A stretch of DNA of 64,000 bases from a virus. Positions 1 to 53,115 of the stretch are shown here, piece by piece. The notes under the pieces are model-generated. The model searched no databases. It saw nothing but the letters and a program-made list of their open reading frames with translations, and was not told where the DNA came from. The stretch covers positions 1 to 64,000 of the IMG/VR virus record IMGVR_UViG_3300046169_000081; one strand, given 5' to 3'. The position numbers and the translations under genes are program-made. How positions within the stretch are numbered: position 1 is the first letter of the stretch; the number at the start of each line of letters is the position of its first letter.

Positions 1-766
1 CTAAAATTATTTAAGGGTAAAATATTAGGTTTAACCGGAACACCACCAAGAGATAATAGATCCACTAAAGGAATGTTAGTACAAAAGTACTGTCCTATAG
101 TTTATAAATTTGATATAGACAAAGCAACAGATTCAAATATATTAAATGACTATAAGATTATAGTACATGAATTAGAGTTATCAAAATTACCGGCTCTTAA
201 AAAGAAAAATAAGAAAGGGTGGTTTTTGGTATACTTCAGAGTATAAAGACTACCAGTACGTGGTAAATAGATTGCATCAAGCTCAATCAGCAAAACAAAT
301 GCAGTTATCAAGAATAATGAGAATGCGTGCATTAATGGACTATACAACAAAAGAAACTTATGTAAAGTCTATACTCAAAAACATAAAAGATAAGTGTATT
401 GTATTTGCAAATACTCAGGAACAAGCAGACCGCATATGCAGCCATAGTTATCATTCTAAAAATGATAAATCAGAATATAATCTTGAGTTATTCTCAGATG
501 GTAGAATAGATAAACTATCTTGTGTTATGCAATTATCTGAAGGTATAACTATACCTAATTTAAAACAAGGTATTATTATGCATGCATATGGTAATGAAAA
601 GAAGACTGCACAAAGAATAGGTAGATTGTTAAGATTAAACCCAAGTGAAACAGCCGTGTGTCATATCCTTTGTTATAAAGGAACACAAGATGTTAAATGG
701 GTAGAGTCAGCATTACAATCATTTGATAATAATAAAATAAAACGTTATAACCCTTTAAATAGATAA
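1..766 (+). CDS. Superfamily 2 DNA/RNA helicase, 5'-truncated by the window and frameshifted
   Basis: The gene enters from the left edge in frame 1 and reads motif GLTGTPP (SF2 motif III-like) near residue 10. Around 217-220 the reading moves to frame 2, where a GFWYTSEYKDYQYV stretch continues into the C-terminal helicase lobe. There IVFANT (motif IV), EGITIP (motif V) and QRIGRLLRL (motif VI, arginine fingers) are clear. Frame 1 ends in a stop at 242-244. Removing one G from the GGG at 217-219 restores one continuous protein, so I treat this as one gene with a +1 break. The role would be ATP-driven unwinding or remodelling at replication or recombination intermediates. The family is sure; the exact type (DEAD/DEAH, phage T5 D10-like) is not. 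Confidence 0.8.
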
Positions 767-771
767 ATAAA

Positions 772-939: not shown

Positions 940-941
940 TC

Positions 942-1178: not shown

Positions 1179-1179
1179 A

Positions 1180-1880: not shown

Positions 1881-1889
1881 ATTATAGTT

Positions 1890-2036: not shown

Positions 2037-2416
2037 GAGATCAATTATTTATAGAAGGTACAGTAAAAGACGGTAAACTACATTTTCCTGTAAAAGCATA
2101 CCAAACAAAATTTGATAGCTTTTTTAAACAACATGAGGATGGTGTAAGAGTAGAGTTATTTATAGGTGTACAAGATGGTAAGGGTAGTAACCCGCAGTTA
2201 GCAAGAATACATGCTATGATTCGTGAGATTGCTAATGAGTTAGGATATACTTTTGAAGAAGTAAAACTACAAGTAAAAAGAAAAGCAGGCCTCTGTTTTG
2301 TTAAGAACAATAAAGAGTACTGCAAATCTTTTGGTAAATGTGATAAAGAAGAACTAAACTTAGCTATACAAGCTGCAATGGAAATTGGAGACTTTAGTGG
2401 TATGCAATTAAGATAA
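2033..2416 (+). CDS. Conserved phage protein of unknown function (127 aa)
   Basis: I chose ATG at 2033 (MRDQLFIEGTVKDG) because it overlaps the upstream stop as ATGA; a longer non-ATG start at 2009 would run through the upstream membrane gene. The central segment QLARIHAMIREIANELGYTF, followed by a lysine-rich strand and KSFGKCDKEELNLAIQA, looks like a compact alpha/beta DNA-associated protein. It loosely recalls the NinB/Orf type of phage recombination helper, but I cannot confirm this. Its last 9 bases overlap convergently with the minus-strand gene that follows. Confidence 0.65.
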   Translation: MRDQLFIEGTVKDGKLHFPVKAYQTKFDSFFKQHEDGVRVELFIGVQDGKGSNPQLARIHAMIREIANELGYTFEEVKLQVKRKAGLCFVKNNKEYCKSFGKCDKEELNLAIQAAMEIGDFSGMQLR

Positions 2417-2824
2417 CTTAGTAAACTCTTGAGTGATATTTTTTAATATCTCTATAGGGTCTTTAGTATTTTCAGTTGCTTTATCTGTAATTTCTTTAAA
2501 TTTATCTTTATCAATAGGAACCTCTTCTACTTTAGTTAGACCTTGTTCATGGGCATAGTTTTTAAGTAAATGGATTAAGGCATAAAGAGTGTATATCTCT
2601 GATTCAGTAGGAGTAAATATTCTTTTTTTGTCTTGAAAAGATTTAGGATCTTGTATAGATTCATTAAACTCTTTTATTAAATTGCTGATATCAGCAACAT
2701 CATCATAGAACTCGGTAATATATCTTAGATATATTTGCTGGAGCCCAACAATAAAACTTGGGTTAATCTCAGCTTTAAGATTTTTAGAGTTGTCGTAGTT
2801 AATATAAGTTTTGTTATCAGCCAT
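2408..2824 (-). CDS. Lone reverse-strand gene, helical protein of unknown function (138 aa)
   Basis: This is the only minus-strand gene in the first 22.6 kb. The product is acidic and mostly helical, with no signal peptide, membrane segment or metal-binding cluster. It overlaps the preceding gene tail-to-tail by 9 nt and is divergent from the uracil-DNA glycosylase gene with only 26 nt between starts. A TAATTTTG box (2851-2844 on the minus strand) could serve as its own promoter. Opposite orientation suggests separate, perhaps late, expression. Family not recognised. Confidence 0.65.
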   Translation of the reverse strand: MADNKTYINYDNSKNLKAEINPSFIVGLQQIYLRYITEFYDDVADISNLIKEFNESIQDPKSFQDKKRIFTPTESEIYTLYALIHLLKNYAHEQGLTKVEEVPIDKDKFKEITDKATENTKDPIEILKNITQEFTKLS

Positions 2825-2843
2825 ATTATAAAGTATTTAAAAT

Positions 2844-2851
2844 CAAAATTA
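2844..2851 (-). promoter_or_regulatory. Possible Bacteroidota -7 box for the lone minus-strand gene
   Basis: Read on the minus strand this is TAATTTTG, matching TAnnTTTG, 20 nt ahead of the start at 2824. The expected -33 TTTG at the 19-nt spacing is TTTT, so the match is only partial. Confidence 0.3.
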
Positions 2852-3558
2852 TGAATAATAAATCAATTATAAAAGAAAAACCAATAGAAGTTAATATAGA
2901 AGAATTAAGAGAGAATGTAAATTCTACTTTAGTATCTTCAGGATGGGATAAAATGCTATCTATATTTGTCAACGGTTTAGACTTTGATTATATAGTCAAC
3001 AACTTAGTTGATTGTGTAAATGCAGGTAAAAGATTTACACCGAAGTTTAAAGATATATTTAATGCATTTAAAGAATGTCCATATGATGATCTAAAAGTTG
3101 TTATAGTAGGTCAAGATCCGTATCCACAGTTAGAAGTAGCTGATGGTATAGCATTTAGTTGTAGTAATAAAGGTAAAGCTGAAAAGTCTTTACAATACAT
3201 AAATAAAGCAATAGGTAAAGACTATACAGATTTAAGATGTTGGTCTAACCAAGGCGTACTTCTTATAAATACAGCATTAACAGTGCAAATAAATAGTATA
3301 GGTTCACATTATAATTTATGGAAACCTTTCACAACTTATTTGTTTGACACAATAAATAAAGTTAAACCAGATACAATATTTATACTAATGGGTAATAAAG
3401 CCCAAGAGTGGCAGACGCTCATACCAAATTGTACAAAAATTAAATGTTCTCATCCAGCTTCAGCAGCATATAGAGGTGGTGATTGGGACCATAATGATGT
3501 CTTCAATAAAGCAAATAGATTATTGGAAAAGCAAAATAAATCTTTGATAAATTGGTAA
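2851..3558 (+). CDS. ung: Uracil-DNA glycosylase (family 1 type)
   Basis: The enzyme removes uracil from DNA by cleaving the N-glycosidic bond. The water-activating motif VGQDPYP is at about residues 86-92, AFSC follows near 104, LLINTALTV near 140 and the leucine-loop region SHPASAAYR near 198-206, in family order. At 235 residues the length is normal; the N-terminal 40 residues are an extra charged segment. The usual His after DPY is Pro here. In a phage this may protect AT-rich DNA from uracil or process host DNA. It is preceded by a divergent gene and followed by a strong promoter overlapping its 3' end. Confidence 0.9.
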   Translation: MNNKSIIKEKPIEVNIEELRENVNSTLVSSGWDKMLSIFVNGLDFDYIVNNLVDCVNAGKRFTPKFKDIFNAFKECPYDDLKVVIVGQDPYPQLEVADGIAFSCSNKGKAEKSLQYINKAIGKDYTDLRCWSNQGVLLINTALTVQINSIGSHYNLWKPFTTYLFDTINKVKPDTIFILMGNKAQEWQTLIPNCTKIKCSHPASAAYRGGDWDHNDVFNKANRLLEKQNKSLINW

Positions 3559-18143: not shown

Positions 18144-18569
18144 ATGGATTATTTTGAATTAGAATGTGCAGTAGAACACTGGGCGGAAGAAAAAGGAATT
18201 CTTTCTAAAGCAACACCAATGGCACAAGCATTAAAAACTTTAGAAGAATGCACTGAACTGGGTGTAGCAGTTAATAACAATGACAGAGCAGAGATTATAG
18301 ATGCTATGGGTGATATAATGGTCACCCTGATTATTCAGGCTAAAATGCAGGGGCTTAAACTAGAGGAGTGTCTTGAGTCTGCGTATAATGTAATTGCAAA
18401 ACGCACAGGTAAGATGATCAATGGTCAATTTGTGAAAGATGATGAAGGCAAATTTTCAGAATGGAATGATTTGGAAGACATTGAAGTTAAGGATCCTGAG
18501 GAAATAAAAATAAAAGATATAGATATTATATCCGGTACTGAATCTGCATATATTAAAAATGAGTTATAG
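18144..18569 (+). CDS. MazG-like nucleoside triphosphate pyrophosphohydrolase
   Basis: The EECTE motif (about residues 34-38) and the EIIDAMGD motif (about 51-58) give the EExxE...ExxD metal site of MazG-type all-alpha NTP pyrophosphatases. The 141-residue protein has an acidic C-terminal extension. Phage MazG enzymes hydrolyse NTPs or dNTPs, or alter alarmone signalling. The end overlaps the SET-domain gene by 11 nt. Confidence 0.82.
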   Translation: MDYFELECAVEHWAEEKGILSKATPMAQALKTLEECTELGVAVNNNDRAEIIDAMGDIMVTLIIQAKMQGLKLEECLESAYNVIAKRTGKMINGQFVKDDEGKFSEWNDLEDIEVKDPEEIKIKDIDIISGTESAYIKNEL

Positions 18570-18855
18570 ACCATTACCTGAAGGTCTTACAATAAAAGAT
18601 TCTTCAGTGCACGGTTTGGGTTTATTTGCAACGCAAGATATTGCTAAAGGTATTGAACTTGGAATAACTCATGTGTATGATGATAAGTTTGAAAATAACT
18701 ATATAAGAACTCCATTGGGTGGATTCATTAATCATAGTGATGAACCCAATGCTCAGTTAATTTCTGTTGGTAACATGATGCGTTTAACAACAATAAAATT
18801 TATTAAAAAAGGGGATGAACTCTTTACTAAATACAAATTATATGAAATTATATGA
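18559..18855 (+). CDS. SET-domain protein, possible lysine methyltransferase (98 aa)
   Basis: The short protein shows the SET signature elements in order: HGLGLFATQDI with the SAM-site glycines (about 19-29), GGFINHSDEPNA (the NHS motif, about 54-65), and GDELFTKYKLY with the closing tyrosine. This is close to the smallest possible SET core. The substrate could be a phage or host protein; nothing in the sequence says which. Overlaps with both neighbours place it in one coupled string. Confidence 0.8.
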   Translation: MSYRPLPEGLTIKDSSVHGLGLFATQDIAKGIELGITHVYDDKFENNYIRTPLGGFINHSDEPNAQLISVGNMMRLTTIKFIKKGDELFTKYKLYEII

Positions 18856-19052
18856 AACACCTAGAAATAGTTAAAGTAATAGCAGGTATTAAAGTACCTC
18901 CTTCTTCTCCAGTTATTGAAAAAGCAGAGGAACTCAATTTTAGCCATGTAGATGGAATGTATAGTTACTGCACAAGAGATAATGGTGAAGTAGTACATTT
19001 AGCAGCATGGACAGAAGTAGAAATAATAGATGATAAAGACACAGAAAACTAA
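18852..19052 (+). CDS. Small protein of unknown function (66 aa)
   Basis: ATGA overlap with the SET gene and a 23-nt overlap with the radical SAM gene indicate coupling. The sequence is mixed alpha/beta (MKHLEIVKVIAGIKVPPSS; VVHLAAWTEVEII) with no motif. It could be a small beta-barrel module, but I do not recognise it. Confidence 0.6.
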   Translation: MKHLEIVKVIAGIKVPPSSPVIEKAEELNFSHVDGMYSYCTRDNGEVVHLAAWTEVEIIDDKDTEN

Positions 19053-19915: not shown

Positions 19916-20806
19916 ATGGGATATAAAAAACCAACAGAGTTACCAGAGTCTTATCTAGAAACTGCACCCTTACCTAATCATGGTAAGACTTACACAGTGT
20001 TACTCACAAAGAAGTGATAGACAATACTTACACCTTACTTAATGCAAGAGTGGGTTTACAGTAACAAAGAAATATATAGAGCAAATATGAATGCTCAATT
20101 AGCACAAGGGATCTATCATATCTACCCATTAAACCGCTGATCAGAAATTATTGAAGAAATGAATTAGGGATGATGTTTGCCTGGACAAATTCATATGATA
20201 AAAGTACAAGATTTCATGTGCTATTGGTGCATATGTAAGAGTTTGTTATAACGGTATGGTTGCCGGAGATATGATGAACTTCAAAAGAAAGCATACTGGG
20301 ACAGCAAATTATGGATTGTTAGAATCATATAGCTGATCAAATTAAAAATGCTGAGAAGTATTATAAGCGTATTGATAGCAGACAAAGATTATTTAAAAAC
20401 TATTGATATTGATTGCAGAGCTGCCTCAGAATTAATTGGTAGACTATATATTGAAGAGGATTTATTAGATTCTCAACAAATGTCTATGGTTAAAAAAGAA
20501 ATGGATAAACCATCTTTTAACTATGGAGTAGCTAAAGATAGTGCATGGGCCTTCTATAATCATGTTACGCATGCATTAAAGAAAGCACATCCGCGGGATT
20601 GGTTAAATGACCAACAAGACTTTCATGATTTTATTACCGCTGAACTGATTAATAAAAATTTATATTCCAATATTGAAGTTGTTAATCAAGACTACGCATC
20701 TAATAATAATATTGAAGTAACCATGGAAGAAGTAGTTGATGTTGTTATAGATGAAGATATAACACATAGCAGGTTAGTTCATGATGCATATATGGATAGG
20801 CTGTAA
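19916..20806 (+). pseudogene. DUF932-like phage/plasmid protein, broken by several frameshifts
   Basis: The start encodes MGYKKPTELPESYLE and NHGKTYTVL. The remaining protein is recognisable only by hopping frames: HKEVIDNTYTLLNARVGL, YSNKEIYRANMNAQLAQGIY, ELGMMFAWTNSYDKSTRF, CAIGAYVRVCYNGMVAGDM, NFKRKHTGTAN, ADQIKNAEKYYKR, then a long open stretch from 20348 with SAWAFYNHVTHALKKAHPR. Together this is a full-length DUF932-type protein. I count at least seven single-base shifts in both directions between 20003 and 20352, and none in the last 450 nt. Function of the family is unknown, often plasmid- or phage-borne. Confidence 0.75.
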
Positions 20807-22836: not shown

Positions 22837-25800
22837 TTAAATGTTTTGGAATCCTAAATCTTGAAGTTTTGTACGAATTAGAGTTTGATAGAAACCAGCA
22901 CTAGGTGAGGTTTGTGGTATACCGGTTGTTCCATATGTTGGGTCTCCGTTATAACCAGAAAACTCTATCCTTCTTGGTGTAGGTGGAGTTGGTTCAATTG
23001 GTAATAGTGGTGCAGTAGTATTACTCCAGTTACCACCAAACTGTAGTCCAGCAGCTACATCACCAAATCCTACTCCATTACGAGCTCCAGCAGAAATACC
23101 TATATTACGAATAGTAGAATTAGTGTTAGCAGCAAACATACAACCAACAGCATTTACATTTGTTGGAGTACCATTTATACTAGCATTAGGTCCAAGAGTA
23201 ATCCAAGTACGTGTTGAATTTAAATCAGCAAGTAAGTTGGCACCACCTGCAGTACCAGTACCACTATATGGACCGGTGTTATTAGGTAGATCATAAGAAC
23301 CAGAAGCTTCATCTCCAAATACTAGTGTACAAATTGTTGTTGCTCTTTCAAATATTCCACCAGTAGAAACAGAAGCATCAAATTCTGCTTGAGTATCTTG
23401 ATAACCATAATTTGCAAGACCATAAAACCAGTTTTCTCCATTTCCTGGAGCTTGATTCATGAAACCAAATTTAAGGTGAGAAGTATATCTATTTCTACCA
23501 TTGGTTGCTGGGTCAGGATTATTATCTGGTGCTCCTTCTACTCCACCTGTTGCATAGAAATCTTGGAATAAAGATCTAAGACTATCTTGATTATTATAGT
23601 CATTTGATGCAAGCGCATCACTTATAGTTAATAATAAAAAATCACCAACTTGAATAGTTCCGGTTGGATTGGCATCACAAAGTAAAGTATTAGAACCCGG
23701 ATTTTGTTGAGTTGTAATATTTATACCAGTATTAGTTAAGTTACCATTGGTTGGGTCAATTATTTGAATTGAAAAAGATGTTGTAACTCCAGCAGGAAGA
23801 GTGCTTGGAACCACAAAAAAAGAATTTTGACCTACACCTGCATCACCCGCTACTACAGCACTAACATCATTTATAAAAACGCTATTAGCTACTTGAGTTC
23901 CACCAGTTACACCACCTGTTCCAGTTATACTATTAGCAGTTACACCCGTAACTTCTACTATAGCTTGCCCAACGCTTACTTGTCTTGCAAGCTCTTGAGC
24001 AAGATCGTCCATTGATCCTGAATTATCAATCCAAACTGCAAAATATGTATCTCTATCTGGAATAATACCTGATATTGTAAATTGTTGTGTGGCTGATAAA
24101 CCTCCTGGATCAGTAACTGTAAGTATAACTGTCCATATACCCCCTGTTACTGGATATGTTCCACTAAGTGTACCTCCACAATCAGCTGGAGTATTTGGTG
24201 TAAATGTTAACCAAGTTCCTGGAGTACCATTAGAATCAACTAGTGTCATGTTATAAGTTAAATCAGAACAAGGATGATCTGGATCAGCTACTGTCCAGTT
24301 ATAAGGAACTAGAACATCGCCTCCTGTAAGATTAGTCCATGGAGTTCCTGTATATGTTGGATCTGTAGGATCAATTGATGTCCATATAGGTGCATCATTA
24401 ATTGAATTAACAGTTATATTAACATTTGCTATATTACTATCACAATAACCATCATTTGCTTGATACGTAAAGCTGTCAAAACCATTATAATTAAGATTTG
24501 GTGTATATGTATATGTTCCTGTAGCTGAATCAAAATTAGTTATTGTTCCATTTGTTGGTTGAGATACTATAGTAAATGTATATCCATATCCTCCATAACC
24601 ATCATCTGAAGTAATAAGTGTACCATTATGAGATGTGTCTTCATCTACTGTAAAGCTAGCATTATTTACTATAGGACAAGTGTTATCAGAATATATCTTA
24701 CAGCATGCATCCCAATTTAATTGAGCATTGCTTGTTGTAGGTACTTCATATAATTCTGCTTTAAATTTAAGCTTCTCACCAAATAAAAGAGTTGAAGTTT
24801 CATAGCCATTATCAATAGCGCCTGTCCAACCGGAACCTATACTAGCTTGATTCCAAGATGTATGATTGCTTACGGTTGTAAAAGAAGCAGAACTCCATTG
24901 AGGGAATCTAATTACATTATCGGCTAACAATGAACCTGTCTTTACATTTTCTGCAATTACTACAACTCTATCTCCATCAACAAGCCAATCCATATCTTTA
25001 ATATTTTTGACTGCAGTTGTTGTGTCATCAAGCTTTACATATGCATTAAAGTTACCATCGGTTGATGCCCAACCATCAGGTAACATTTCTAATGTATCAA
25101 AGCCAACTTGTGGTTTAATAGTAGATGCATCTCTTTGTCTTACCAATCCTGTGGTAGTGTCTCTTACTAATACTTTCTCTAAAGCATTATCATCAGGAAC
25201 ATCTTCTAATTCTAAATCAACATTTATTTGAACAGATCCATCTGCTAAACGTGGGTGTACACCACCTGCAGCATCACCTCCTAATACAAGTTTATTGTTA
25301 GTTTGTGTAGTATCAACATCAAAAGAGATGAATTCTTCTTTTGATAGGTTAGCATCTTCACTTGTAAAGTGCTCTATTTTAAGTTGATCTGAACTAATAC
25401 TATCAGTCTCTATACCAAAGACATTGTTACCCTCTGCAAAAAAGTTTACTTGATTAATATCATCATTAACTAAATTAATAACTGAGTCTGCTGATGTATT
25501 TATCACGTTGAATGTAACGCTAGATATTACATTTGTAGCTGGTGTAGAATTATCACCATCTTGAATAAGTTTTGAACAGCCTAGTGTGTTAGAGTCAGGA
25601 GTCCAAAGAGGAATTGTATATACAGCACATTGCTCTCCTACTATAGCAGCAGGGTTATCCTCCCATGAGAACGTAACCCCATCAGAAATCAAAATTTGAT
25701 CAGCATTACCAATAGGCAATTCTTGTTTGAGGTCATTTATATTACCTTGCCATAGACTACCATATGTAAGAGCTTCAACAACGTCATCATCAGACCATAT

Positions 25801-26445
25801 AACTCTACCATCAGCAAGACCTACAAGAACTTGTGCTAGTCCACCCACATTACCTTGAGAGTCATATACCGGACCATTAAGGAATATGTTTGAGTTTATA
25901 ACTGTGTTTGTAGTTGGTTGAGCTGGTGACACAACAGGAACACCATGCTGAACATTTACTAAAGCTGTAAATGTAACACCATCCATTGTAAAGTTTGGAT
26001 CATCTTCTAATTCTCCATTTGGCCCTACAATAACTATACGGTCCTCAGTAAGGTCTAATATATTTGCTGAACCAGCTGTAAGTTGCAAGTCTACTATAAG
26101 ATTACCATTGTTTACTGTAATAGTATCTCCAATAGCATTCTGTGTAATAATAGAATCCTTTAGCGTATCCCAAGAACAAGATCCTTCAGGTGTAGTATAG
26201 ACAGGTACAAAACCTAAATTACCTGAGCCAGGTTGAGTTCTGGTCAGGTCTTCTGTTGCTTCACATACAAGGTCTCCCCATTTAATTACAAATGGTTCCA
26301 TTTTAGGATTATAAGCCGCTCCAGTATTTAAATTACTGGTTTGATAAAGCTTACCAAACTCAAAATGATCTCTCATTTTGTCTAGCTTCTTTTTCTTTTT
26401 ATTTCTTTTTAATAGCCCTAAGACTTCTTGTATATAAACGCTCAT
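22837..26445 (-). CDS. Large tail-fibre or receptor-binding protein with Ig/cadherin-like and VWA-like domains
   Basis: The N-terminal 560 residues are fibre-like, with repeated beta segments (TVNNGNLIVDLQ; KPQVGFDTLEMLPDGW). Around 590-790 are two cadherin/Big-type domains with GFDSFTYQANDGY and TYTYTPNLNYNG, followed at about 797-812 by DNSGSM, a MIDAS motif of a VWA-like domain. The final part is Gly/Asn/Thr-rich. Such modules bind cell-surface sugars or proteins and usually form the host-contact end of tail appendages. No signal peptide. It is one of two fibre-like proteins in this operon. Confidence 0.75.
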   Translation of the reverse strand: MSVYIQEVLGLLKRNKKKKKLDKMRDHFEFGKLYQTSNLNTGAAYNPKMEPFVIKWGDLVCEATEDLTRTQPGSGNLGFVPVYTTPEGSCSWDTLKDSIITQNAIGDTITVNNGNLIVDLQLTAGSANILDLTEDRIVIVGPNGELEDDPNFTMDGVTFTALVNVQHGVPVVSPAQPTTNTVINSNIFLNGPVYDSQGNVGGLAQVLVGLADGRVIWSDDDVVEALTYGSLWQGNINDLKQELPIGNADQILISDGVTFSWEDNPAAIVGEQCAVYTIPLWTPDSNTLGCSKLIQDGDNSTPATNVISSVTFNVINTSADSVINLVNDDINQVNFFAEGNNVFGIETDSISSDQLKIEHFTSEDANLSKEEFISFDVDTTQTNNKLVLGGDAAGGVHPRLADGSVQINVDLELEDVPDDNALEKVLVRDTTTGLVRQRDASTIKPQVGFDTLEMLPDGWASTDGNFNAYVKLDDTTTAVKNIKDMDWLVDGDRVVVIAENVKTGSLLADNVIRFPQWSSASFTTVSNHTSWNQASIGSGWTGAIDNGYETSTLLFGEKLKFKAELYEVPTTSNAQLNWDACCKIYSDNTCPIVNNASFTVDEDTSHNGTLITSDDGYGGYGYTFTIVSQPTNGTITNFDSATGTYTYTPNLNYNGFDSFTYQANDGYCDSNIANVNITVNSINDAPIWTSIDPTDPTYTGTPWTNLTGGDVLVPYNWTVADPDHPCSDLTYNMTLVDSNGTPGTWLTFTPNTPADCGGTLSGTYPVTGGIWTVILTVTDPGGLSATQQFTISGIIPDRDTYFAVWIDNSGSMDDLAQELARQVSVGQAIVEVTGVTANSITGTGGVTGGTQVANSVFINDVSAVVAGDAGVGQNSFFVVPSTLPAGVTTSFSIQIIDPTNGNLTNTGINITTQQNPGSNTLLCDANPTGTIQVGDFLLLTISDALASNDYNNQDSLRSLFQDFYATGGVEGAPDNNPDPATNGRNRYTSHLKFGFMNQAPGNGENWFYGLANYGYQDTQAEFDASVSTGGIFERATTICTLVFGDEASGSYDLPNNTGPYSGTGTAGGANLLADLNSTRTWITLGPNASINGTPTNVNAVGCMFAANTNSTIRNIGISAGARNGVGFGDVAAGLQFGGNWSNTTAPLLPIEPTPPTPRRIEFSGYNGDPTYGTTGIPQTSPSAGFYQTLIRTKLQDLGFQNI

Positions 26446-38824: not shown

Positions 38825-41800
38825 TTATTTACCTAATATACATTTTTTAATATTTTCTACAAAAGATTCTTCACTCTCAAATGAGTTAGTTTCAAAAGCA
38901 GATACCATATCTTCAAGGCTACTAATATTATTTTCTTTCAAAGAAGTTTTATTTTGAAGTATTTCTTCATTAACAAAACCTAGTGCAAAAATACTATTAT
39001 AAAATTCAGTAATTATAGGATATCTATCTTGTAATTCAGCTTCAAACAAATCCAATTGTTCTGCTTTTTGTTCTGATACTTCTGGTAAACTAGCCTGAGC
39101 TTCAAGTACATTTTCTGACTGTTCAACCCCACTAGTTTGTTGTGTTGGTTTTATTACTTTAGGAATATTACCTGAATTATCAATACCTAATTCTAATAAT
39201 TTAGAATCTAAATAAGACTGATGCTGAGAAGGTAATTTAGCAAATCTACCACCTTGACCTATTCTAAAGTTACCCAATTTAAGAGTTTTAAATTTAGGCA
39301 AATCTTGTTTAATTTGAGCTATCTCATCATCAATTGTATCTTTAAATAAATCAAAATTTTCATTAGTCCAATTAGTACCATAAGCACTCATTGTAGAAAT
39401 AGGGTAGGCATTATTCTTACCTCTTATTACTGCACTAGTAGGGTTAGATTTACTACCATAGTGTAAAGGCTTATCAGTTTTATCTTTATACTTTTCCGCA
39501 TACCAACCTTCTATAATATTAGGAGAAGTGGCGTTAGGTCTAGAGGTTCTTTCAGCATTGTCTGTAAATAAATACATACTGCTTGAATCATTATCTAATG
39601 AGTTTCTAGAATACTTTTTACTAGTAACTTCTATTTTAACCTCACTAGGTTGTTGTGTTGGAGCTTCTTGTGATGTAACTGATAACAAATTTGATAATGT
39701 TGCATCACTAATATTAATTGCACCTTGACCCTCATCTATAATACCAACAGAGTTTTCATCTGCAACTATATCAGCTCTATCATTACTTAATATTCTTGCT
39801 GATACAGATGTGTTATTTTGCATTTGAATATTTTGTAATGCACTCTCTGAAGGTTCAAAGCTAGTATCTACACCTGCAAATTCATTTGTCCCATAACCAA
39901 TCTCTTCTTTATTTTGGATATTATATTTGACTTGGTTATAAGTATCACGTTCACCAAACATAAAACCAATACCATTTTGGAAGTTAGAGCCCATAGTATC
40001 AATAAGATTATATCTATATGAAGAAGCCTTTTCAGAAGGTTCTATTTTAAATGTTAAGTAAGTTGTTTTTACAAAACCTGTAGCAACATTTTCAACCATA
40101 TCCTTAACTCTTATATATTTAGGTTGATCTTCAAAGTCAAAATTTAATTCACCATCTGCCGCTTTAGATATAAATGCTTTTTTATCATTTGTTAAAGACC
40201 CTCTAAGACCTCTGACTTGTGTACCTAAATTAGATTGATAAACTTCTACTTGCTTTAATTTAGGCCCTGTAATATTTGATGTAAGATATCCATCTTCTAA
40301 TTCATTATATAATTCTTCTTTGTTTAATCCAAAGGTTTCTATAAAGCCTGCATCATTTTGCTCAGGTCTTAAAAATGTTTCCTTAACTGTATTAATGTGT
40401 GTAAGATATTCATCAATAACAAAAGGTGAAATAGCATCCAACAATGTTCCTCTCTTAAGTTGTAAACCATCTTTAACCATAATATAGTTTACAATTGTCA
40501 TAGCATCTGCTCTTGTTGCTGGATTACCATAAAGCTTTGCAAAAGATGTTTGAAGGTCTATCTTTTGTAACTTATTTAGTTTTCTCCAACTATTAGATTG
40601 AAGTATGTTTAAACCAGTAACATTATTTTTATTTTGTATTGGTAATACTTCTAAAAATTTAGTCAAGAAAAAGTTATTTGGATCTGCAGTTTTCAATCTA
40701 TTTACAGAAGTATAAATATTAAAATTACCTCCAGGGTAAATTAATGCATTACTTAAAGTACCAGCACTCTTTTCTTTTGTATTAGCTACATTATGCATGT
40801 ATGCTTTTATAGTAAAGTAAGAAAGTAAATCTCTTTTAATACTTTGCTCAACCTCATTATTAAATGCTAAATTATCTGTATCAAAACTTACAGCTAACCT
40901 ATCATAGAACTCATTCATTACATCAGTTCCAGTAATAAATGTAGTAGGTATTAATTGATCTGCAAGTTCATTAAATACCCTCAAAGATGAGTTTACCCAA
41001 CTATCTTGAATTATTGGTGTAATATCTAATAAAGGCGATACCTCTAACTTTGAAGGTCTTAATCCAAGTTTTTCAAACTTATCAATTCTATCTTCTACAT
41101 CAGATAGATTCTTGCCAATACCATTACCAGATATACCAGTAAGTGCTTCTAGATTTCCGGTAAATTGAGATATAGAAGCAACTTTATATAGTATGCTTAA
41201 AATATCTCTTTCGGTTTCAGGTAACAAAGTTTCCCCTTCTACACTAGCAGCTAATTGATCTTGATTTACATCTGAATCTGAAAGACCTTTTTTCTTTAAT
41301 TCTTTATTAAGTAATGTGATTCTTTCTTTTATAAGGCTTGTAAATCCTTTGTCAAACTTTTGTTTTTTATTAGCAGCTTGATCAAATAAGTCTCTTGCTA
41401 TTTTAGTGTTTAATAATAGTACTGCATCTTCAAGGGGTACACCCAAAGCAACCATATTTGTAGCAATGCTTACCGCTTGTTTATGCATACCAAGTTTGGC
41501 TACATAATTTTCCTTTGAGTTATCAGTTAACATTGTAACTATAGATGATATTACATCTTGTTTTCTTTCACCATCTCTAACTTCTAGTACATCAAATCCT
41601 TTATAGAATTTATCATTTAAACGGAATTGAACTCTTGGATCTAACTGTATCCCATACTCAGTTAACAAACTTAAATATAAGTTTGGAGACACAGCTCTAC
41701 CAATAGCAGCACCTTTATTATTTTCAAATGATAATGTTTTACCGTAAATATCATCTACATCTACATTTTCTGCACTTCTACTTTCAACATAATTAGGAGC

Positions 41801-44800
41801 TAGTAATTTTAAATTTTTATATGATGCTTCTACAGCTGCTAATGCAGCAGGTGTGGTAGAAATTTTTCTTATCCCTTCATTACCAAGTAATGCTATTCTG
41901 TAATCTAGTATTTGATTATCAATAGCGCCGCTATAAGGCTCACCATATTGTTCTTTATATTTAGTATATTCTAATTGAGTTTTGGGTAAACCTAATCTTT
42001 GTATTGCCTTTATACTTCTATCAGACCAACCTAAATCATTTAAGTTAAGTGTCTCAGCAGAATCTTCTAATTTTGATCCTTGTCTTTCAAAAGACTTTAC
42101 TGCTTGTGCATAAACAGTGTCTTCGTTTACTTTCTTATTTATAAAAGCAATATAGTCTTGAAACTCTCTACCTTTTGTTTCACCATAAGCATCAAAAGTT
42201 TTTGTTTCTGAATTATAATAGTAATCCTTCATTTGAGTATAAAGCTTATCAATATCAAAATCAGCTCCTGATACTTCAACTAATTCAGCAGCAAACATTG
42301 CTGATGAACCATAATATGTAGGTAAGAAATCAACAACTTTAATATTCATGGCAGAATGTTTATCCTGTGAAGGAATTCTAACACCAAACATTTTTGCAAT
42401 TACGTCTGGTATTTTACCACTCTTTTCACTTATTTGCTCATATACCTCTTTAGAAAGTGCAGGCATCAAAGCTTCACTATAAACTAGACCCGTTTCATTA
42501 CCTTTATTATCATACTCTTTTAGGTTATATCTTAGTCTATCATATATGACTATACCTTCTTTAGGTATTTCTAATCCTTTTAATCCTTCAATAGTTAGAT
42601 CACTATCAACAGTTATACCTTTAGAGTCTATCTCTCTTATTACTTCCTGATCTACCTAATTTACCATCAGCCTCTAAACTATAAACTCTTCTTAATACTC
42701 TAGCGCCTAAATCAGAAACTAATGCAAAACTATCTCCAGGTATTTTTTCTTGGAATACTCCTTTATTAAAGTAACTTAAGAAACAACTGCTCTGCCTTAG
42801 CAATTGCAATAGGGTTGTTTATATCAAAGTTAGGTTCATTTGTCTCAGGATTAATTGAGAACATTTCTATCAGGTTACTGCTAGATTGACTTGCTTTTAA
42901 GGAGTTTTGTGCATACTCAAAAAAAGTAGCTAGGTTAGCTGTAATTTTATTACTTTGTCTACTAAGATCTAATTCAGATAGTAAACCTTCAAACGTATAT
43001 ATTAAGTTTCTCTTATCTTTAAATTTGAGATAAAGTCTTTTTCTAATTGCATTATTATATGCTCTTTTTACATCAGCAATATTTTTAATCTCAGGCATAC
43101 CCTCTATAGATATAGGAGTATCATCAACTTGCTCAGATGTAATTAAAGTTTTAATTTGGCTAAGTTCTGTAATTTGTTTTTTGTTAGATGGATTTACAAC
43201 CTGCAAACCAAAATCTCTTGCGCTTATAATAGATGAAGGAGAATCAATGTTATCTTTAAGATTAACTAAATTTTGTTTTAACATCTTAAATGCAGATTCT
43301 GGAGCAGCAATACTTGGAAAATTATTTTCAGCTTCTAAAGCTTCCATATTATTTAACAAGAAATGTAATTCTTCTTTTCCTGGTTTTGCTTCCCATATAA
43401 TGTTATCATTCTCATCTCTTCTTCCTGTATCATTAGAAGTAAGTTGTCTAGATAACATAAACCCTGACATTTTGATAAATGACTCACCATCAAAGTGAAC
43501 AAACTTTTTTGAGTTGAATACCCCATTTTGGTTAATTAAACCTTGTGGTCCAAATACATCATCAGAAGTTAATTTTTCTCCACGCTCTATTTTATTTAAT
43601 AGATCGGCTTGTGTCTGAGAAAGTTTACCTAAACCAAACCAGAACTGTCTAAATGCTTTAGGAGTCAAATACATTTGAGCATCAGCACGGTCTATGCTAT
43701 TATTAGAAAAGTCTGAAGTAACAGTTGGCTCATTAAACTGAATAACATTAATTTCAGTTGTTGGAGATGTCACTCCTTTTTTCTCATCAGTAAGTGGTGT
43801 GTATACATTATCAAAAGCAGCATTCATACCTTTTGCTCTTTTGATTTTATCTATACTATTTTTGAGTATTTTAGCTTGATCTCCTAATAATAATTCATTT
43901 AGTGATTTAGTATTTATATAATCATTAAAGAATACTTGTCTTAAGTTATATCTCTGATCAGCTCTTAAATTAAGTGCTTCAGCAGCCTTAATAGATAAAG
44001 CTCTTGCCTCACCCTTTTTATCTAGCACAATACCTTTTTTAAGATCATTATTTATTAGCTCATCTATTTCATATTGTTCTATAAGAGCTTCAAATCTATT
44101 ATACTTTGCTTCTAAACTTGTTCTTATTACTTTGTCTAAAAACTGAGACTTTGAAAAACCTGCAAGTTTTACCGCTTGATCAAATAAAATGTCTTGATCT
44201 TGATTCATTGCGGACATTTCAAGTTGTGATTTAACTTGTACATTATCTCCTAAGAAAAACGCTTCACTATTAAATAAAGTATTTGCTCTTTGGACTTCTC
44301 CAATATTATATCCAACTATATCATCTTGAGTTTTTGTCTCACTATTATTTTCTCTTTTGATACGGTTGTACTCATTTTCTATAGAGTCATATACAACATT
44401 TAACACTTCTGTAGTAATAGCGGCTTCCTTGCCAGATACAGCTTTTATAACCGGCAGTGATGCTAAATCACCAGTGTTAGATGCTTCTAATACTCTAATA
44501 AGTAAAGGTGCTGTAGCTACAATCTCTGTTCCACCTGACTCAGTTTCAATTCTAACCTCACTCTTTAATTTATTGTTTTTCGGATTAAAGTCTAACGTAT
44601 AATTGTTAATAAGGTTTGTTATAAATTGCTTCGGTGTATAGCTACCATACTCAGTTGTATTTAAGATACCCTCTATAAACGCGTCATAATCAGACTCTCT
44701 ATCTAGCGTTTCAACTAATTTAGTACCTGAAATTCTTTTAATAGATAAAAGGTTACTATTAGCCATGCTCTCAAAAGCAGGATTGTTCAATAGATAATTA

Positions 44801-47800
44801 GAACTTAAAAATACTGAGTTAAGCAATTTTTGTCTTTCACTTATTTTATTAAGTGCTGTAACTCTTTTAAGATTAAATGTAGGTTTCTGATGTGCATTAA
44901 CCATGTCACCATTTACATTGGTAAATACTGATAATCCAATTGACTCATCAAACACAGCATTATTGATTGCCATTTTTCTAATCTTAGATGTAGCACCATA
45001 TTCAGAATATAGATCTACATCTTTTACTATCAAGTCATTTATAAAATAAAGATCTTCTGCAGTAACTGGATCTGATGTTTCATTGAAGTCTAATAACAAT
45101 TGTTGGTTAGATGATCCTGCTCCTCTAGATCTAATAATACTATACTTTATGTATAAAGGACTAAGTTTTATACCTGTACTATCAAAAAGATTTTGAGCTA
45201 TACTCACAGACAAATTTTGCAAAGCAGCATCTTCAATAGTTTCTGTTGCTAACAATTGAGCTCTAAAAGCTTTTATGGAATCTGTAGCTTCTTTCTTTTT
45301 TCTTTTATCAAGTAACCACTGTTGACTTAATGTTAGATATGCTTGACCCCAAAGATCTATTTGTGTGTGTATATCATCTCTTTCTGCAGCAGAATATGTT
45401 ATTACATTTCCTGATTCATCCATCTGTTGGAATAACCACTCTACTCTAAAGTTTGTAAATGCTTTTGTTATCTGATTAAATAATAAAGGATCTTTGATAT
45501 TTTCGGGTAAAGTCATTTGACTAACATCAACACCATAAGGTATACCTATGTCCTCAAACATTTTTTTAACAACACCTTTAGTATTAGGATTGTCTTGAGA
45601 AAATAAATACATAGCCTGTAGAATCTCTAAAGGATCTTCTTTTGATTTTACAGATTTTAATATTCCATTATAGACACTATATACATCTATAGGTACAATC
45701 AAAGGTTCTCCTTCTGTAAGTTCTACATTACCAAAAATATCAGTTTGCTCTTTAGTTATAGTTGCTAAGTAACTTCTAATATATGTAGGCAGTGAACTAA
45801 AACCACCATTCATGTAAGCTTCTTTACCAAACTGTGTTACATTTCTAAGACCATCTTGATTTTCATAATCATCTTCTGATAACTCTTGCTGTTGTTTCTG
45901 AACATCTATAATGTCAAGAACATCCATAACAGCCTTATAAATAGGTTGGTTTTTTACATCAGCAAATAAATCAAAGTTTATTGCTTGATATATCTGAACT
46001 AACTTATCATATCTTAATTGATTAGTTGGTGTATCTGTTGCTAAAAGTTTTTCATTTGCAGGATTGTTAGGATCATACAAATCAGAAAAATCATTAAGCA
46101 AGTCTTCTATTATCTCTTCGTTTGTTTTTTGTTTACCCTCATCATTGAGATAAAACCTTGGATCTTTTCTTCTATTAATATAGTTGGCAGCAATAGTTAA
46201 AGCCAAATTGTTAGCAATATTAGAATCTAAGTATAATCTTCCTTTAGATCCATTTACTTGTACAGCTTCATATGGCAGCAATGCATTTGCAATTGTAATA
46301 GCCGGCCCTGCCTGCATAGTAAAGTCATTTGCTACAACAGTAGCATTTGCATATTTACCAGCATCAATATTTTCAAACAAAGTTTGTAACTCTGTTTTAG
46401 AGTATGATTCAAACACAGCTTTAATCCATTCAATTATTCTATTAAAGAATGATTTTATTGAGCTGTCTGTTTTAGTATCTTTAGGATTAGCTTTAAATAA
46501 CTCAAACTGATCCGCCATATACTCTTCATAATACTCTCTCTCAAGTTGTTCTTGAGTCATATTTGTATAAGTATCCGCAGAGTTTCTAAATTTAATTAAC
46601 TCTTTTTGAAGACTCTTACCTTCTTTTCTTAATTGTGCTCTCTTTTCTTTCTTAGCAATCGCAAGCAAACGTTTTTGCTGTTCAGGTGAAAGTAGCATTC
46701 TGTATACACCGTGGAAAGCTTCATGATATCTAAAAGGATTTGTTGCACCTGTATATATCGTACCACCCGCAGTTAAACCACCAGCTAAACCATTTAAGTC
46801 TAAAACAAATGCACCAACTCTTTTACCACCTGCTTTAAGATTATTACCAAGTTGTTTTATATCAGCTACAGTAATAAACTCAGGTAAGTTATCCTGTGCC
46901 CACAGTAAAAAGTCATCAAGACTTTCTAAATCAGATACTGAATATCCTGCAGGTAAAACTTTATTCCCTGGTTTTAAAAGTCTCTCTCTTTCTTGTAATA
47001 AACTTTGATACTCTTTACTTTCTTTAAGAGCTTTTCTTTTATTGTTCCAACCTACCTCTGAAGTTATTTTTTCTTCAAGTTCTTTAATCTTGCCATTTAG
47101 TACATCAATAGGTGTTGCAGCTAGTGCAGTCAAATCAATTGACTTGTTTTTGCTCTTCAGCCATACTTGACCCTTTAGGTATTCTTCTATCTGTGGTGCA
47201 ATGGATCCTTCTTGTCTAATTGCTTGCTCTCTTTCTGTAAGAGGTACACCAGCCATAATTTTCTGTGCAATAGAATCAATCAATTGCTTCTGTACTGTTG
47301 TTGGATCATTTACAAATCCTTCCCAAACAACATCAGATACTTCACCTGCACGTGCTTTATCAGCTTCAGCAGCAACCTCATCTCTTGCATCAACTTGATC
47401 CTCTGCTAGTTTACTTAGTATATCAGCTTCTTGATTATCTATCTTAGATTTCTGACCTTGGCTTATAGATTTTTTTGGTTCTACATTATCTGGTCTATTA
47501 ATATTTGCAGCTTTATCTATAGCAGCTTGAACCATTCCAGATTCAGCATTCACAAACAAATAACCACCTCTTCTAATTTGAGGTGATAGTTTTGTAGATA
47601 AACTTTCTAACATCTCATTAATAGATGCATTTAATGGCACACTGGTAGTAAAATTGTTTATTGTAACATTTACATCTTTAGCCACACTTTGTTCTGTAAG
47701 TTTAGCTAATAATTGCTCTAGTTTAGAAATATTAGAACCTTCTTTATTTAAATCTGCTTCATATAAATATTGATATGCACCAACACGTCCTACACCATTC

Positions 47801-50800
47801 TGATAAATTTCTCCTCTAATTTTACCCCATGGATCTACTGTAATATTCAAATTAAATCCCTTGGGCATATTAACCCTAAACTTTTTATTTGTATCATTAT
47901 TAAATACAGTATTGTAATCAGCATTTATATAATCACCAACTTTTTTACCAGGATGTTTACTAATGTTTTCAGAAGTAACTAAATTCTCCTGTCTAGTTTT
48001 TTCTGCTTGAGTTTTCATATCAAGCATTACACTTTCTAATACATCTTTAGATAATCCTGTAGTTTTTGCTGTAGCTAGAGTATAAGTACCATTAGGTTGT
48101 CTAACTACGTATTGATATCTTTCTGTGTAGTTAAAGGTATCAGGCCCCATCATCTTATCAAATAAACTAATGCTTTGACCACCAATAGGTAACTTTAATC
48201 CTTCTTCAACTTCTGCTACTAATGCTGCTTTTTGATCTGGGTCTGTTATGTTAGAATATGTTTCATAGTCCATCATTGATCCATCCGCTGCTCTTGTAAT
48301 ATCAAATATTAATACATCACCTCCATCATTAGCTGCATAAGGAAGTTCAGATAGTGGTATTAAAGGATTATTACCACTATAATCCGGATATCCTGCAAAG
48401 TTTCTAATTTGAATGCCTGCAGGTAGTTGACCAATTTTAATAACGTTTTGATCTTTTTTAATTAAAGCTTCAACCTCATTTAACAATAAATCTTGTTTTG
48501 CAAAATTAATTTTTGCTTCTTCTAAAGTTTGCTCAATTGTTTTTCCTTTTTGTGGAACAAATACATTACTTGCAAAATCAACAGACATTTGTGCAGGAAG
48601 AACTTGATTACCTTTATCATCTCTAAATATAATTGACTCAGCAGGTATATAACCTATTTCTCCATTTTCTGGTATAGTTGGTAGTTTTGCATCTGTAAGT
48701 TTTTGATTTAAATTATTTCTTAAAACAGGATCAGCAATAGCAACTTGTAATGTCACCCTTTGATTCTTTCTTCTTATATATGGGTTACTAATACCATTAA
48801 TTATAAAAGGATCCTCATATAATTTATCATTTGGTAAAATATTAATTATAACACCATTTAATAATTGATCTTCTGTTAAAGATGCACCAATAAGTGCAAG
48901 TTGTTTTTCACCAATTTCTCTATCTAATTCTTTTGGTGAATAGATTACTACAGGATCATCTACTGTTACTTTAGGGGCATCAGCAGATAATACTGTAAAA
49001 CTAATTTTTTCTATCTCAAACCTTTTAGAAAAGTCTAATTCACTTTCATAAATAGCAGCATCTTTTCTATCATTATAATTATTAGTCCATCTATCTGCAG
49101 GTACTAAAGATACTGTACCTCTAGATGCATGTTTAGGATTACTGTTAATTATAAACTCAGTACCAACGGGATAATCATCTATAGCCACTTTACTAAATAC
49201 TGATATACCTTTACTTAAAGACATACCATCAAATCTAAATGTTGTACCATCTGAATACTCTCTTTCAAGAGTATCAAATGCAACCTTAGCTTCTTCCATA
49301 GAACTAAAAGTAGCACCCAAAGGTCTATTGATTATTTCTAACATTTCATTAGAAAGAGAATTACCGTTTACATCAACAATTTCTACAAACTCTCCTTGAG
49401 CAGATGATCTTCTTACACCTCTAAATGCTACACCATCCATACCACTAATAGGTTGAACGGCAGCTTGACCCGTATTAGATCTAGAAAAAATACTCATGTT
49501 TAATCCATAGTCATTTACTATAGATTGTACTAAAGGATTTTCAATTGCTTCTCTACTATCTAAAAACTTCTGAAAACCAATTTCACTTTCTATTTCTTGT
49601 TGTGTAGGTTTAACCTTAACCGCTGTTTCTTGACCATTTTGAACCACAATAGTATCATATCCTGTAGCCCAAATTCTTTTTAATGCGGATAAAGCAGCAA
49701 CAATATTAGTTGCATTTGTTGTCTTTCTCCATTGTTCTGGAGTTAATATAGCATCTTTTGTGTTAGCTCTATATTTACGGTATTCTTTTTCTAAAATAGA
49801 CTTTAAAGTTTTTGAAGTATTTATATCTCCAATATTTATTTGAATACCTGCATCTTCTAATTTATCTTCAACATCTAAAATAGTTTCTGCTTGAACAGAT
49901 TGTGAAGATTCTACTTCTGCTTGTGCTTTATCTTGTTGATCTAGTTGAACAAATGCGGCAAGCAAACCACCCACCTCTTTGATTAATTTAGCATCTTGTT
50001 CTAATCTTGGATTAAGTAATTTACCATCAATAAAAAATGCACCTTTATTACCCTGTAGTAGTAAAGCAAGTAAATCTTTTTCTGTTATTTCACCAGCAAA
50101 ATATTTCCTAACTAAGGTTGGCTCTATAGCAACCTCCTTTTCATATAACAAATTAATTAGCTCATTCTTTTTTTGTGTATCTAAATATCTAGCAGCTGCA
50201 TCTCTTACTACCGCATCTTTATTTTTATACAACCATTCATAGTATTGCTTTGATCTATCAGCAATTTCTTGTTGCTTAGTGGGGTTAGTCATAAAATCAA
50301 TAGACCTAGAAAATGATGCTGCATCAGATCTAAGTGCGCTATGATCTACAATTTTTGCAACTGCATCATCAACTAAATCTTGATTAACAAAGTCAGAATT
50401 ATTTTCCGCAAGAACTTGTATATAGTTTTTAAATGCAGATCTAACTTTATTTACTGTACCTTGTCTTCTGCTTATGTTTCCTTTTTTAGTTATATTTTTT
50501 GGGTCATTAATAACATCAGCATACTTCTGTAAAGCTTTCCTTTTATTTTTCTTTTTGTTGATTACTGTTTTAGATTCTCCTGCTTCCTCTGCAGCTTTAA
50601 TCTCAGCATCTAGCAAAGTTAACTCTTGGTCTATACTTTCTTTGTTATATAGTATTCTTATATCAGAACTTGCTTGATTAGCAAACAAAGGTTCTGTTTC
50701 TAATGATGTCTCTATAGCTGCTTGCCTTTCTACAGCATTTTTATAAGCTTCATTAGTAAACATATAAAGCATCTTATTATGTTTATATGCCTGTTCTTCT

Positions 50801-53115
50801 CTTTGTAAATTTAAATACTCTGGACTACCAGCAGTTAAATTCTCGTAGTTAAAAGTTTTATCAAATACTTTAGGTAATTTATTAGCAAAAGTCTCACCAT
50901 ATTCATCTATCAGATTAATTTGTTTCTGAATACGTTTTCTTACCTTCTCAGGTTTTCCAAACTCTTTTGGATTAAAAGCTTCTGCAAGATCTTTATCTGA
51001 CATTTTACTAAACTCAAGATAACTTTCTCTTGCAAATTTTATAGAGCCTCTTTCATATGCTGAATACAAATTAAAAAATTGTGCAGCAAACTGTGCATTA
51101 TCAAAATCATATTTATCATTATCTGCAAACGCAATGCTTTGCTCAGAAAAATTTTGTTTTTGTAATATAGCTTGAAATTGAGCTGGTGAAAGCACAGATT
51201 CTAAATCTTGTTTCATCATTTCACCACGCTCATTAATTTGTTTTACAATATCATCTAATACTTGTTCTCTTCTTTGACTATATTCTTTAGCATAGTTTGA
51301 TTGTGTACCATCACCAAATTTTGTGTTTGCTTTTGCATATGCACTTCTACCAATAGCAGGTAAACCCTGAAACAAAACTTGCTGATAAGGACCAGCTAAA
51401 CCACCCATTAAAAATCCTGAAAGAAAAACACTCATGCCTTCTTTTGATGCAAGATTAGAAGTTGATTGACCAACATAACCGGCAAGAGTTGACGGGCCAC
51501 CGCTTAAAGGATCTCTCAATAATGAGCTGTAATATCCAACTGTTGCAGCAGAAATTGCTTCTTGAGATACTTCTTGTACACCTTCTGCTAAATTAGCAGC
51601 ACCATATCTTAACATCTGAGTACCCATAACTTTAGCAGCTCCTTTGTAACCGGCTCTATTAAAGGCTAATTTAAGTTCTTGTGGTATTCTCTTTATTAAA
51701 TATTTACTTCCCTTTACTGCTGTAAATGCATCTTTACGTAGGATTCTATTGGAGTTAGTAACTTGCCTTCTCCAACCACCAAATGCATTTTTTAAAACAA
51801 TTCTGTTAGAGGCATATATAACAGCAAAGTTTGCCATCTGAGCTTTAAAAGATGCCTCAGCAGCTTTAACCATTATATCCTTGGTCTGTTGTTCTGTTAC
51901 ACCCCCACCTTGATTTTTATAGTTTGCTTCATTAAAACCATTATTTAAAACTTGGTTATAAACCATACCTGCTTCCATTTTAGATTCAGATAATGATGCA
52001 TTAACCATTCTAAAATCTCTATAGAATGCACCAAATAAATTTGTTGTCTTAGCAAGATTTATTGTATTCTGTGCAGTGGTTTTTGCAGTCTTCCAATTTT
52101 TAAGTGCATATAAAGTTTCTGGTGCTATTGCTCTAAATACAGTATTCATACCTTTACCAAGCTGAGCAGCATTAAAAAGATCTCTTGCTCTTTCTACTTG
52201 AGATATTTGTTTTACAAAGTCATATGAAGCTTTTGCACCTCTTGTAAAAGATGTACCTTTCATTGTAAAATCAAAAGCCCTTTTTATTCTAGGTATAAAT
52301 CTTCCTTGTGCAGCAACAAATGCAGCAAGACTACCACCACCAGTTGGTACAGCTGTAAGAGCAGCTCCGGCTGCTAATATTGCTTCTTCAACGGCAATAG
52401 ATGCCACAATACCTGCTGTATAACCAAAGTTTAAACCAAGGTTGCCAAACCAACCACCAAAACTACCAGATGTACTACCACCAATTCTCATAGCATCTTC
52501 CATCTCTTGTGCAGACTCAAGATCTGGATCTTCCCAATAACTATCACCATCAAAAATATCTGCTAATGATCTATAACTTGATACAAAACCAGTCCCTCCA
52601 AGCTTTAAAAATTGTTCAAAACCTCTTTGAAATCCATCCCAACCAGTCATATTTTTATTGAATACAGCATCCATGTTAGCATAAGGAGCAAAACCTATGT
52701 CTGCAAAAGCATTACTCTCGTACTGTCTATCAAAGTTTATTTGTCTTACATTGCTCCAAATAGGATTTGGAAGTGTTCCTTCATCAGGTGTAAGAGGTTC
52801 TTTAAGACTTTGCTCTAATTGTTCTGCTATAGTTAATTTTTTTTGTGGCTGTGTGCTGGTAGATAAACCAGGAGACAACTTATCCATAAACATATTACCA
52901 ATAGCATTAGGTCCAACCTTATCCATTTCTGTTCTGTACATATCAATTTGCTGCATGTACTTATCATCAATAGGATTTTCTAAAGGAGGCAGGATATCAT
53001 CTATAGATTGATAAGGAACAGATGTATCAATAGGATTCATATCAACTGAATCTTGTACAATTCTCTGTTTCAAATCAAAATCTGGACTTGGTAAATTGTT
53101 TGTTAATTCTGACAT
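38825..53115 (-). CDS. Giant polyprotein with zincin metallopeptidase and two-barrel RNA polymerase, frameshifted
   Basis: Read as one gene it would be 4,762 aa, but two +1 breaks near 42777 and 42647 split it. Regions: hydrophobic segment about 225-290; HEAFH zinc-protease motif at about 2131-2135; RNA polymerase core from about 3140, with TDAQ-like DRADAQMYLTP, KFVHFDGESFIKMSG, then RIPSQDKHSAMNIKVVDFLP and SGADFDIDKLY (DFDID at about 3618-3622). A conserved YLFTDNA...IRGKNNA domain and QLDLF clamp-binding motif (about 4686-4690) lie in the C-terminal part. This matches crAss-like virion RNA polymerases, which transcribe early genes. The family call is firm, the intact state is not. Confidence 0.78.

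What the first reader, a model, noticed from the sequence alone, without database searches (positions are those of the whole stretch)
38825..53115. RNA polymerase polyprotein broken by two same-direction +1 frameshifts inside its catalytic core
Seen: the 3449-aa and 1214-aa segments read as one protein if one A near 42777 and one G near 42647 are removed. The 43 codons between them (KGVFQEKIPGDSFALVSDLG) lie in a third frame and look coding. Known: two-barrel polymerases need this core. Inference: sequencing/assembly error is likely, but programmed recoding or inactivation is possible.
Basis: partly seen in the sequence, partly recalled or inferred. Interest (0 to 1): 0.75.

Follow-up and report, generated by a model that had tools for sequence, protein, structure and literature searches.

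The report
Indel-error artefact in phage polymerase gene
The giant RNA polymerase gene of this crAss-like bacterial virus looks broken in two places, but every relative that can be checked has it whole and the same contig has indel-riddled patches in other genes, so the breaks are almost certainly sequencing or assembly errors in an otherwise ordinary virion polymerase.

Summary
The 3449-aa and 1214-aa ORFs and a third-frame stretch of 43-44 codons (42648-42779, minus strand) align end to end with single uninterrupted ORFs of 4505-5468 aa in relatives. The gene is a crAss-like virion RNA polymerase: a model of the core of an intact relative matches the phi14:2 polymerase structure 6VR4 (E=1.5e-17). 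The middle segment encodes barrel strands about 130 residues before the catalytic DFDID.

The breaks are not biology. All 91 relatives that could be tested (about 54 distinct at 95% identity) are open across both sites. The same contig has seven further frame changes in two other conserved genes: one near 217 and six within about 370 bases at 20004-20377. Two independent intact relatives place them at matching positions. Density is about 18 per 100 kb of aligned coding DNA, in three tight clusters, with insertions and deletions mixed. Conserved residues are retained on both sides of each joint, and no recoding signal was found. Sequencing or assembly error is the best explanation (0.93).

In passing, the same gene carries two copies of a 24-nt DNA-conserved linker (PTQQ[T/A]S[E/G]V) bordering an exchanged cassette. 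This deserves its own follow-up.

The parts
42766..53115 (-). N-terminal 3449-aa segment of the giant virion RNA polymerase (frame A)
   Evidence: colinear with residues ~18-3403 of the intact 4505-aa relative in L006; retains 48 of 54 highly conserved core residues
42776..42783 (-). Frame change 1 (+1 nt, TTTCTTAA tract); judged a sequence error
   Evidence: both relatives place it at 42780; 91/91 testable relatives open here
42648..42779 (-). Middle segment (44 codons with the shared Leu), third frame; encodes helix end and three barrel strands of the polymerase core
   Evidence: 10 of 11 highly conserved residues present; strands 319-329, 335-342, 348-354 in the relative's model
42646..42647 (-). 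Frame change 2 (+1 nt, at a GG pair); judged a sequence error
   Evidence: both relatives place it at 42644; joint matches the RSEVIR/RSEIIR stretch of relatives
38825..42640 (-). C-terminal segment of the polymerase with intact DFDID motif (frame C; the annotated TTG ORF 38825-42469 is a truncated reading of it)
   Evidence: 83 of 87 highly conserved residues retained
1..766 (+). Helicase gene with a further +1 frame change near 217 (GGG run): same error type elsewhere in the contig
   Evidence: intact in G004 395 aa and G008 368 aa; phrog_16 DNA helicase
19916..20806 (+). Conserved gene broken by six frame changes at 20004-20377 plus an in-frame stop; intact in two relatives (306 and 286 aa): error-rich patch of the contig

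Best explanation
The gene is one continuous reading frame of roughly 4700 codons in the real phage. It encodes a crAss-like, virion-packaged, single-polypeptide two-barrel RNA polymerase that (by homology with phi14:2) would be ejected with the DNA and transcribe early genes. The two frame changes at about 42780 and 42646 are single-base errors of the assembled contig. They lie in one of three short low-quality patches of this record (near 217, 20004-20377 and 42644-42780). Shown here: continuity of homology across three frames, intactness of all testable relatives, further indels in unrelated genes of the same contig, and homology and predicted fold of a crAss-like polymerase. Inferred: that the indels come from sequencing/assembly and not from the phage itself, and the packaging and early-transcription role.
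For: (1) 91 of 91 relatives whose sequence spans both sites have one open frame there, about 54 distinct at 95% aa identity. (2) Frameshift-aware alignment of proteins from two separate intact relatives, G004 and G008, places nine frame changes in this contig at matching positions in three genes: 217; 20004, ~20048, 20124-20160, 20216, 20325, ~20375; 42780 and 42644. The relatives aligned on each other give three calls each over ~22,000 codons, in a 65-aa doubtful ORF, near gene ends or in poor alignments. (3) The nine sites fall in three clusters, never reproduced in 100,000 uniform draws; density is 18 per 100 kb of aligned coding DNA. [quoted passage not shown] (4) Insertions and deletions are mixed, and several sites lie in short homopolymers (my reading). 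(5) Highly conserved residues are retained in all three segments: 48/54, 10/11, 83/87, so no decay has accompanied the breaks. (6) The record is a metagenomic IMG/VR contig, classed linear.
Against: No raw reads, coverage or sequencing platform could be examined, and no near-identical second assembly of this phage was found. The relatives survey keeps the best 80 of 299 matches, which favours long uninterrupted genes. A small fraction of relatives may also be broken: L063 has a disruption elsewhere in the gene, near core residue 556-579.
Confidence: 0.93

Rival explanations
1. The indels are real: the contig represents a defective phage lineage or a minority molecule whose polymerase, helicase and a further conserved gene carry genuine loss-of-function mutations.
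For: The lesions are in the record and fall in three genes. Without reads they cannot be excluded.
Against: Nine lesions in three tight patches with otherwise intact conserved residues. Loss of the polymerase core would be expected to be lethal, since the giant polymerase is a hallmark of these phages (PMC10136315). All other giant genes of the module are open over kilobases.
Confidence: 0.05
2. Programmed recoding: two +1 ribosomal shifts (or transcriptional slippage) restore the polymerase, comparable to the unexplained expression of disrupted polymerase ORFs noted in zeta crAss-like phages.
For: Both shifts go the same way. The first out-of-frame stop is preceded by CTT and the second by CTC, loosely like the CUU-stop site of the RF2 gene (own knowledge). 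PMC7886860 reports zeta-group polymerase ORFs disrupted by stops and frameshifts and suggests unknown expression mechanisms.
Against: No relative has a break at either site. No unusual RNA structure at or after the sites: z = 0.14, -1.60, -0.06. Shifting at the stops would replace the nearly invariant SYF by other residues. The same contig has six mixed +1/-1 changes in 370 bases of another gene, which no recoding signal would explain. No tRNA gene was found in the window, and TAA, TAG and TGA all end genes.
Confidence: 0.015
3. The polymerase is genuinely split into two separately started subunits, the second beginning at the TTG at 42469.
For: An ORF finder calls 38825-42469 with a TTG start. 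Multi-subunit phage polymerases exist (own knowledge).
Against: Coding conservation continues upstream of the TTG to 42640 and through a third frame. No relative is split there.
Confidence: 0.005

Closest known systems
Virion RNA polymerase gp66 of Cellulophaga phage phi14:2 (PDB 6VR4), crAss-like
   Same: Core predicted fold of an intact relative: Foldseek E=1.5e-17, TM 0.60. hhalign E=4.7e-12 with DFDID and the RIPNQ/RIPSQ motif aligned. Single polypeptide, next to other giant genes.
   Different: Much longer (about 4700 codons across the broken pieces, 4505-5468 aa in relatives, against 2180 aa) and only ~20-24% identical; this copy is interrupted by indels.
Disrupted polymerase ORFs of zeta-group crAss-like phages (PMC7886860)
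   Same: Polymerase reading frame interrupted by frameshifts.
   Different: There the disruptions are described across the group, with introns, inteins and stop-codon reassignment. Here no relative is broken at these sites and other genes of the same contig carry error-like indels.
Residual indel errors of long-read viral metagenome assemblies (PMC6487183)
   Same: Density of about 18 per 100 kb of aligned coding DNA against 22.78 reported for polished long-read assemblies; single-base insertions and deletions that truncate ORFs.
   Different: The platform of this record is unknown, and the errors are clustered in three patches.

Membership tests
crAss-like virion RNA polymerase (phi14:2 gp66 type) | DxDxD metal-binding motif of the large-subunit barrel | tested here: met
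   DFDID at residues 127-131 of P0002, invariant in the relatives' alignment, aligned to phi14:2 DFDID
crAss-like virion RNA polymerase (phi14:2 gp66 type) | Two-barrel QDE-1-like fold in a single polypeptide | tested here: met
   Model of the core of intact relative L006 (pLDDT 82) matches 6VR4 first and QDE-1 second. The window protein itself was not modelled, and the two barrels were not delimited separately.
crAss-like virion RNA polymerase (phi14:2 gp66 type) | Located in a block of giant co-oriented genes of a crAss-like genome | tested here: met
   Minus-strand ORFs of 1922, 1214+3449, 1111, 939, 616 and 887 aa in a row; DnaB-like helicase, Sak4-like, DNA polymerase and RNR genes nearby
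crAss-like virion RNA polymerase (phi14:2 gp66 type) | Packaged in the virion and transcribing early genes | not testable with these tools
   Needs virion proteomics and transcription assays
Programmed +1 frameshifting | Frame change conserved among homologues | tested here: not met
   0 of 91 testable relatives change frame at either site
Programmed +1 frameshifting | Stimulatory RNA structure near the site | tested here: not met
   z = 0.14, -1.60, -0.06
Sequencing/assembly indel artefact | Further indels in unrelated genes of the same contig | tested here: met
   Helicase (217) and gene 19916-20806 (six changes), concordant with two relatives
Sequencing/assembly indel artefact | Indels absent from accurate reads of the same sample | not testable with these tools
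   No reads available; no near-identical second assembly in IMG/VR

The most novel reading that the evidence does not exclude
Recoding of the frameshifts is all but excluded (under 2%). The most novel reading left open concerns the same gene: giant crAss-like polymerase polyproteins exchange whole domain cassettes through a short linker conserved as DNA (CCAACACAACAANCTAGTGRGGTT, read as PTQQ[T/A]S[E/G]V), which acts as an intragenic recombination joint. In this window two copies border a C-terminal cassette that is 90% identical in DNA to a relative whose polymerase is otherwise about 40% identical in protein.
Probability: 0.55. Interest if true: 0.6.

Novelty: not a real feature. Interest (0 to 1): 0.12.

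Why it matters
It removes a tempting false lead: a double +1 recoding site in a viral polymerase would be extraordinary, but the sequence record explains it. It also warns that this IMG/VR record has indel patches (near 217, 20004-20377 and 42644-42780) and should not be used as is for gene calling, split-gene statistics or recoding surveys. Frameshifted polymerases reported from single metagenomic contigs deserve the same relatives-plus-same-contig check.

Tried and rejected
A near-identical second assembly: a gapped DNA pattern spanning break 1 found nothing in IMG/VR, and megablast found nothing in the phage collection. PHROGs and Pfam do not recognise the polymerase. Sequence search of PDB chains by single protein and by two profiles found no relative; homology was shown by hhalign and by fold instead. 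Stop-codon reassignment as a cause: rejected, because TAA, TAG and TGA all end genes, no tRNA gene is present, and the breaks are frame changes, not single in-frame stops. Intron or intein at the breaks: rejected, since alignments abut with no extra sequence. The phi14:2 structure paper is not held.

Full report
OBSERVATION. Both ORFs are present as described. The minus strand shows the frame changes in the TTTCTTAA tract (about 42776-42783) and at GG 42646-42647. The stretch between them, 42648-42779, is open in the third frame and reads LSYFNKGVFQEKIPGDSFALVSDLGARVLRRVYSLEADGKLGRS. The window is part of a 66,405-base IMG/VR virus record classed as linear.

CODING CONTINUITY. Proteins of intact relatives, aligned by tblastn to the break region, hit frame A up to QLFL, frame B from SYF to about the ADG/GRS stretch, and frame C from about EIDSKG on. 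The identities are 38-57%, and the middle segment alone is hit by every relative shown. On an alignment of 53 relatives, the highly conserved (90% or more) positions are kept in 48 of 54, 10 of 11 and 83 of 87 cases in the three segments. The three pieces are therefore one protein, and nothing has decayed around the joints.

WHAT THE PROTEIN IS. DFDID and the RIPSQ motif align with phi14:2 gp66 (hhalign E=4.7e-12; tblastn E=2e-8). An AlphaFold2 model of the 810-residue core of the intact relative L006 (pLDDT 82.4, pTM 0.83) matches 6VR4, the phi14:2 virion polymerase, at E=1.5e-17 and TM 0.60, followed by QDE-1. In that model the middle segment covers the end of helix 300-316 and strands 319-329, 335-342 and 348-354, about 130 residues before DFDID at 481-485. 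[quoted passage not shown]

ARE RELATIVES BROKEN? Protein and profile scans fetched 93 relatives holding the DFDID region. 91 span both break sites, and all 91 are open there; two are truncated by their contig ends; the window alone switches frame 2-3-1. At 95% identity they amount to about 54 distinct sequences. Caveat: the scan keeps the best 80 of 299 matches, which favours uninterrupted genes. L063 shows a disruption elsewhere in the gene.

THE SAME CONTIG IS BROKEN ELSEWHERE. I took the whole contigs of two relatives, 96 kb and 118 kb, and aligned their proteins to this contig with a frameshift-aware dynamic programme. Both relatives place changes at matching positions: +1 at 217 in a helicase gene; -1 20004, +1 at about 20048, -1 between 20124 and 20160, -1 20216, +1 20325 and +1 at about 20375 in the gene 19916-20806, which also has an in-frame stop; and +1 at 42780 and 42644 in the polymerase. 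Aligned on each other, the two relatives give three calls each over about 22,000 codons, in a 65-aa doubtful ORF, near gene ends or in poor alignments. That is nine concordant indels in 50 kb of aligned coding DNA, 18 per 100 kb, in three clusters never reproduced by 100,000 uniform draws. [quoted passage not shown] The platform of this record is unknown, so this is a consistency argument. Several sites lie in short homopolymers (my reading).

RECODING AND INACTIVATION. PMC7886860 notes that polymerase ORFs of zeta crAss-like phages are disrupted by stops and frameshifts and suggests unknown expression mechanisms, so recoding had to be taken seriously. It fails here. The sites are not conserved in any relative. 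RNA folding near them is ordinary (z = 0.14, -1.60, -0.06). A shift at the CTT-TAA stop would change the nearly invariant SYF. The six mixed changes in the 20-kb gene cannot be programmed. All three stop codons end genes. Real inactivation cannot be excluded without reads, but would need simultaneous fresh lesions in three genes.

VERDICT ON THE FINDING. The gene is an ordinary, large member of the crAss-like virion polymerase family. Interest is low.

SIDE RESULT. Near its C-terminus the gene carries two copies of CCAACACAACAANCTAGTGRGGTT on the minus strand (39638-39661 and 39125-39148; none expected by chance). Between them lies a cassette 89.8% identical in DNA over 539 nt to L002, starting at the first base of the left copy and ending at the edge of the right copy, while the rest of the polymerase is about 40% identical in protein. 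A scan of IMG/VR with a pattern allowing synonymous codons gave 38 instances in ORFs of 300 aa or more, of which 37 share the identical DNA core; codon usage alone predicts about 4%. Flanks are exchanged across it: L113/L125 left 0.85, right 0.28; L125/L111 left 0.40, right 0.92. It was not found in the phage collection, and literature searches found no description (no preprints held). A domain-exchange joint is my inference. A protease-site or purely structural linker role is possible, but would not need identical DNA.

Noticed in passing
window 39125-39148 (-) and 39638-39661 (-); also L002-L004, L037, L047, L058, L060, L063, L064, L069, L108-L137, L140, L141, L148, L151, L152: A 24-nt motif CCAACACAACAANCTAGTGRGGTT, always read as PTQQ[T/A/P]S[E/G]V in long ORFs. 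37 of 38 long-ORF instances share the identical DNA core although synonymous codons were allowed (about 4% expected), and unrelated left and right flanks are recombined across it. Candidate DNA-level domain-exchange linker in giant crAss-like polymerase and neighbouring genes.
   Followed up: partly
window 39123-39661 (-): Cassette of about 180 aa (YSRNSLDNDSSSMYLFTDNAERTSRP...) 89.8% identical in DNA to L002-L004, ending exactly at the two linker copies, while the rest of the polymerase is about 40% identical in protein. tblastn also matches separately annotated proteins of gut crAss-like phages (cr130_1 'DprA-like', cr131_1, cr272_1).
   Followed up: partly
window 19916-20806 (+): Conserved gene (306 aa in G004, 286 aa in G008) with six frame changes and a stop within about 370 bases: a low-quality patch of the record.
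   Followed up: yes
window 1-766 (+): Helicase gene at the contig's left end is also frameshifted, at a GGG run near 217.
   Followed up: yes
L058, L060, L063, L064 relative to L027 (polymerase, before the NLKQIFFND motif): Different inserted segments of roughly 140-180 aa at the same place in otherwise closely alike polymerases, bordered by PTQQ-type linkers; in L063 the insert region is out of frame.
   Followed up: partly
window 18523-18930 (+): Possible further -1 frame change near 18851 against the single relative protein G4_54372 (138 aa); only one relative, so uncertain.
   Followed up: no
window 22837-26445 (-): 1202-aa protein with a bacterial Ig/cadherin-like domain (PF17963, E=8.7e-13), probably a surface or tail protein.
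   Followed up: no
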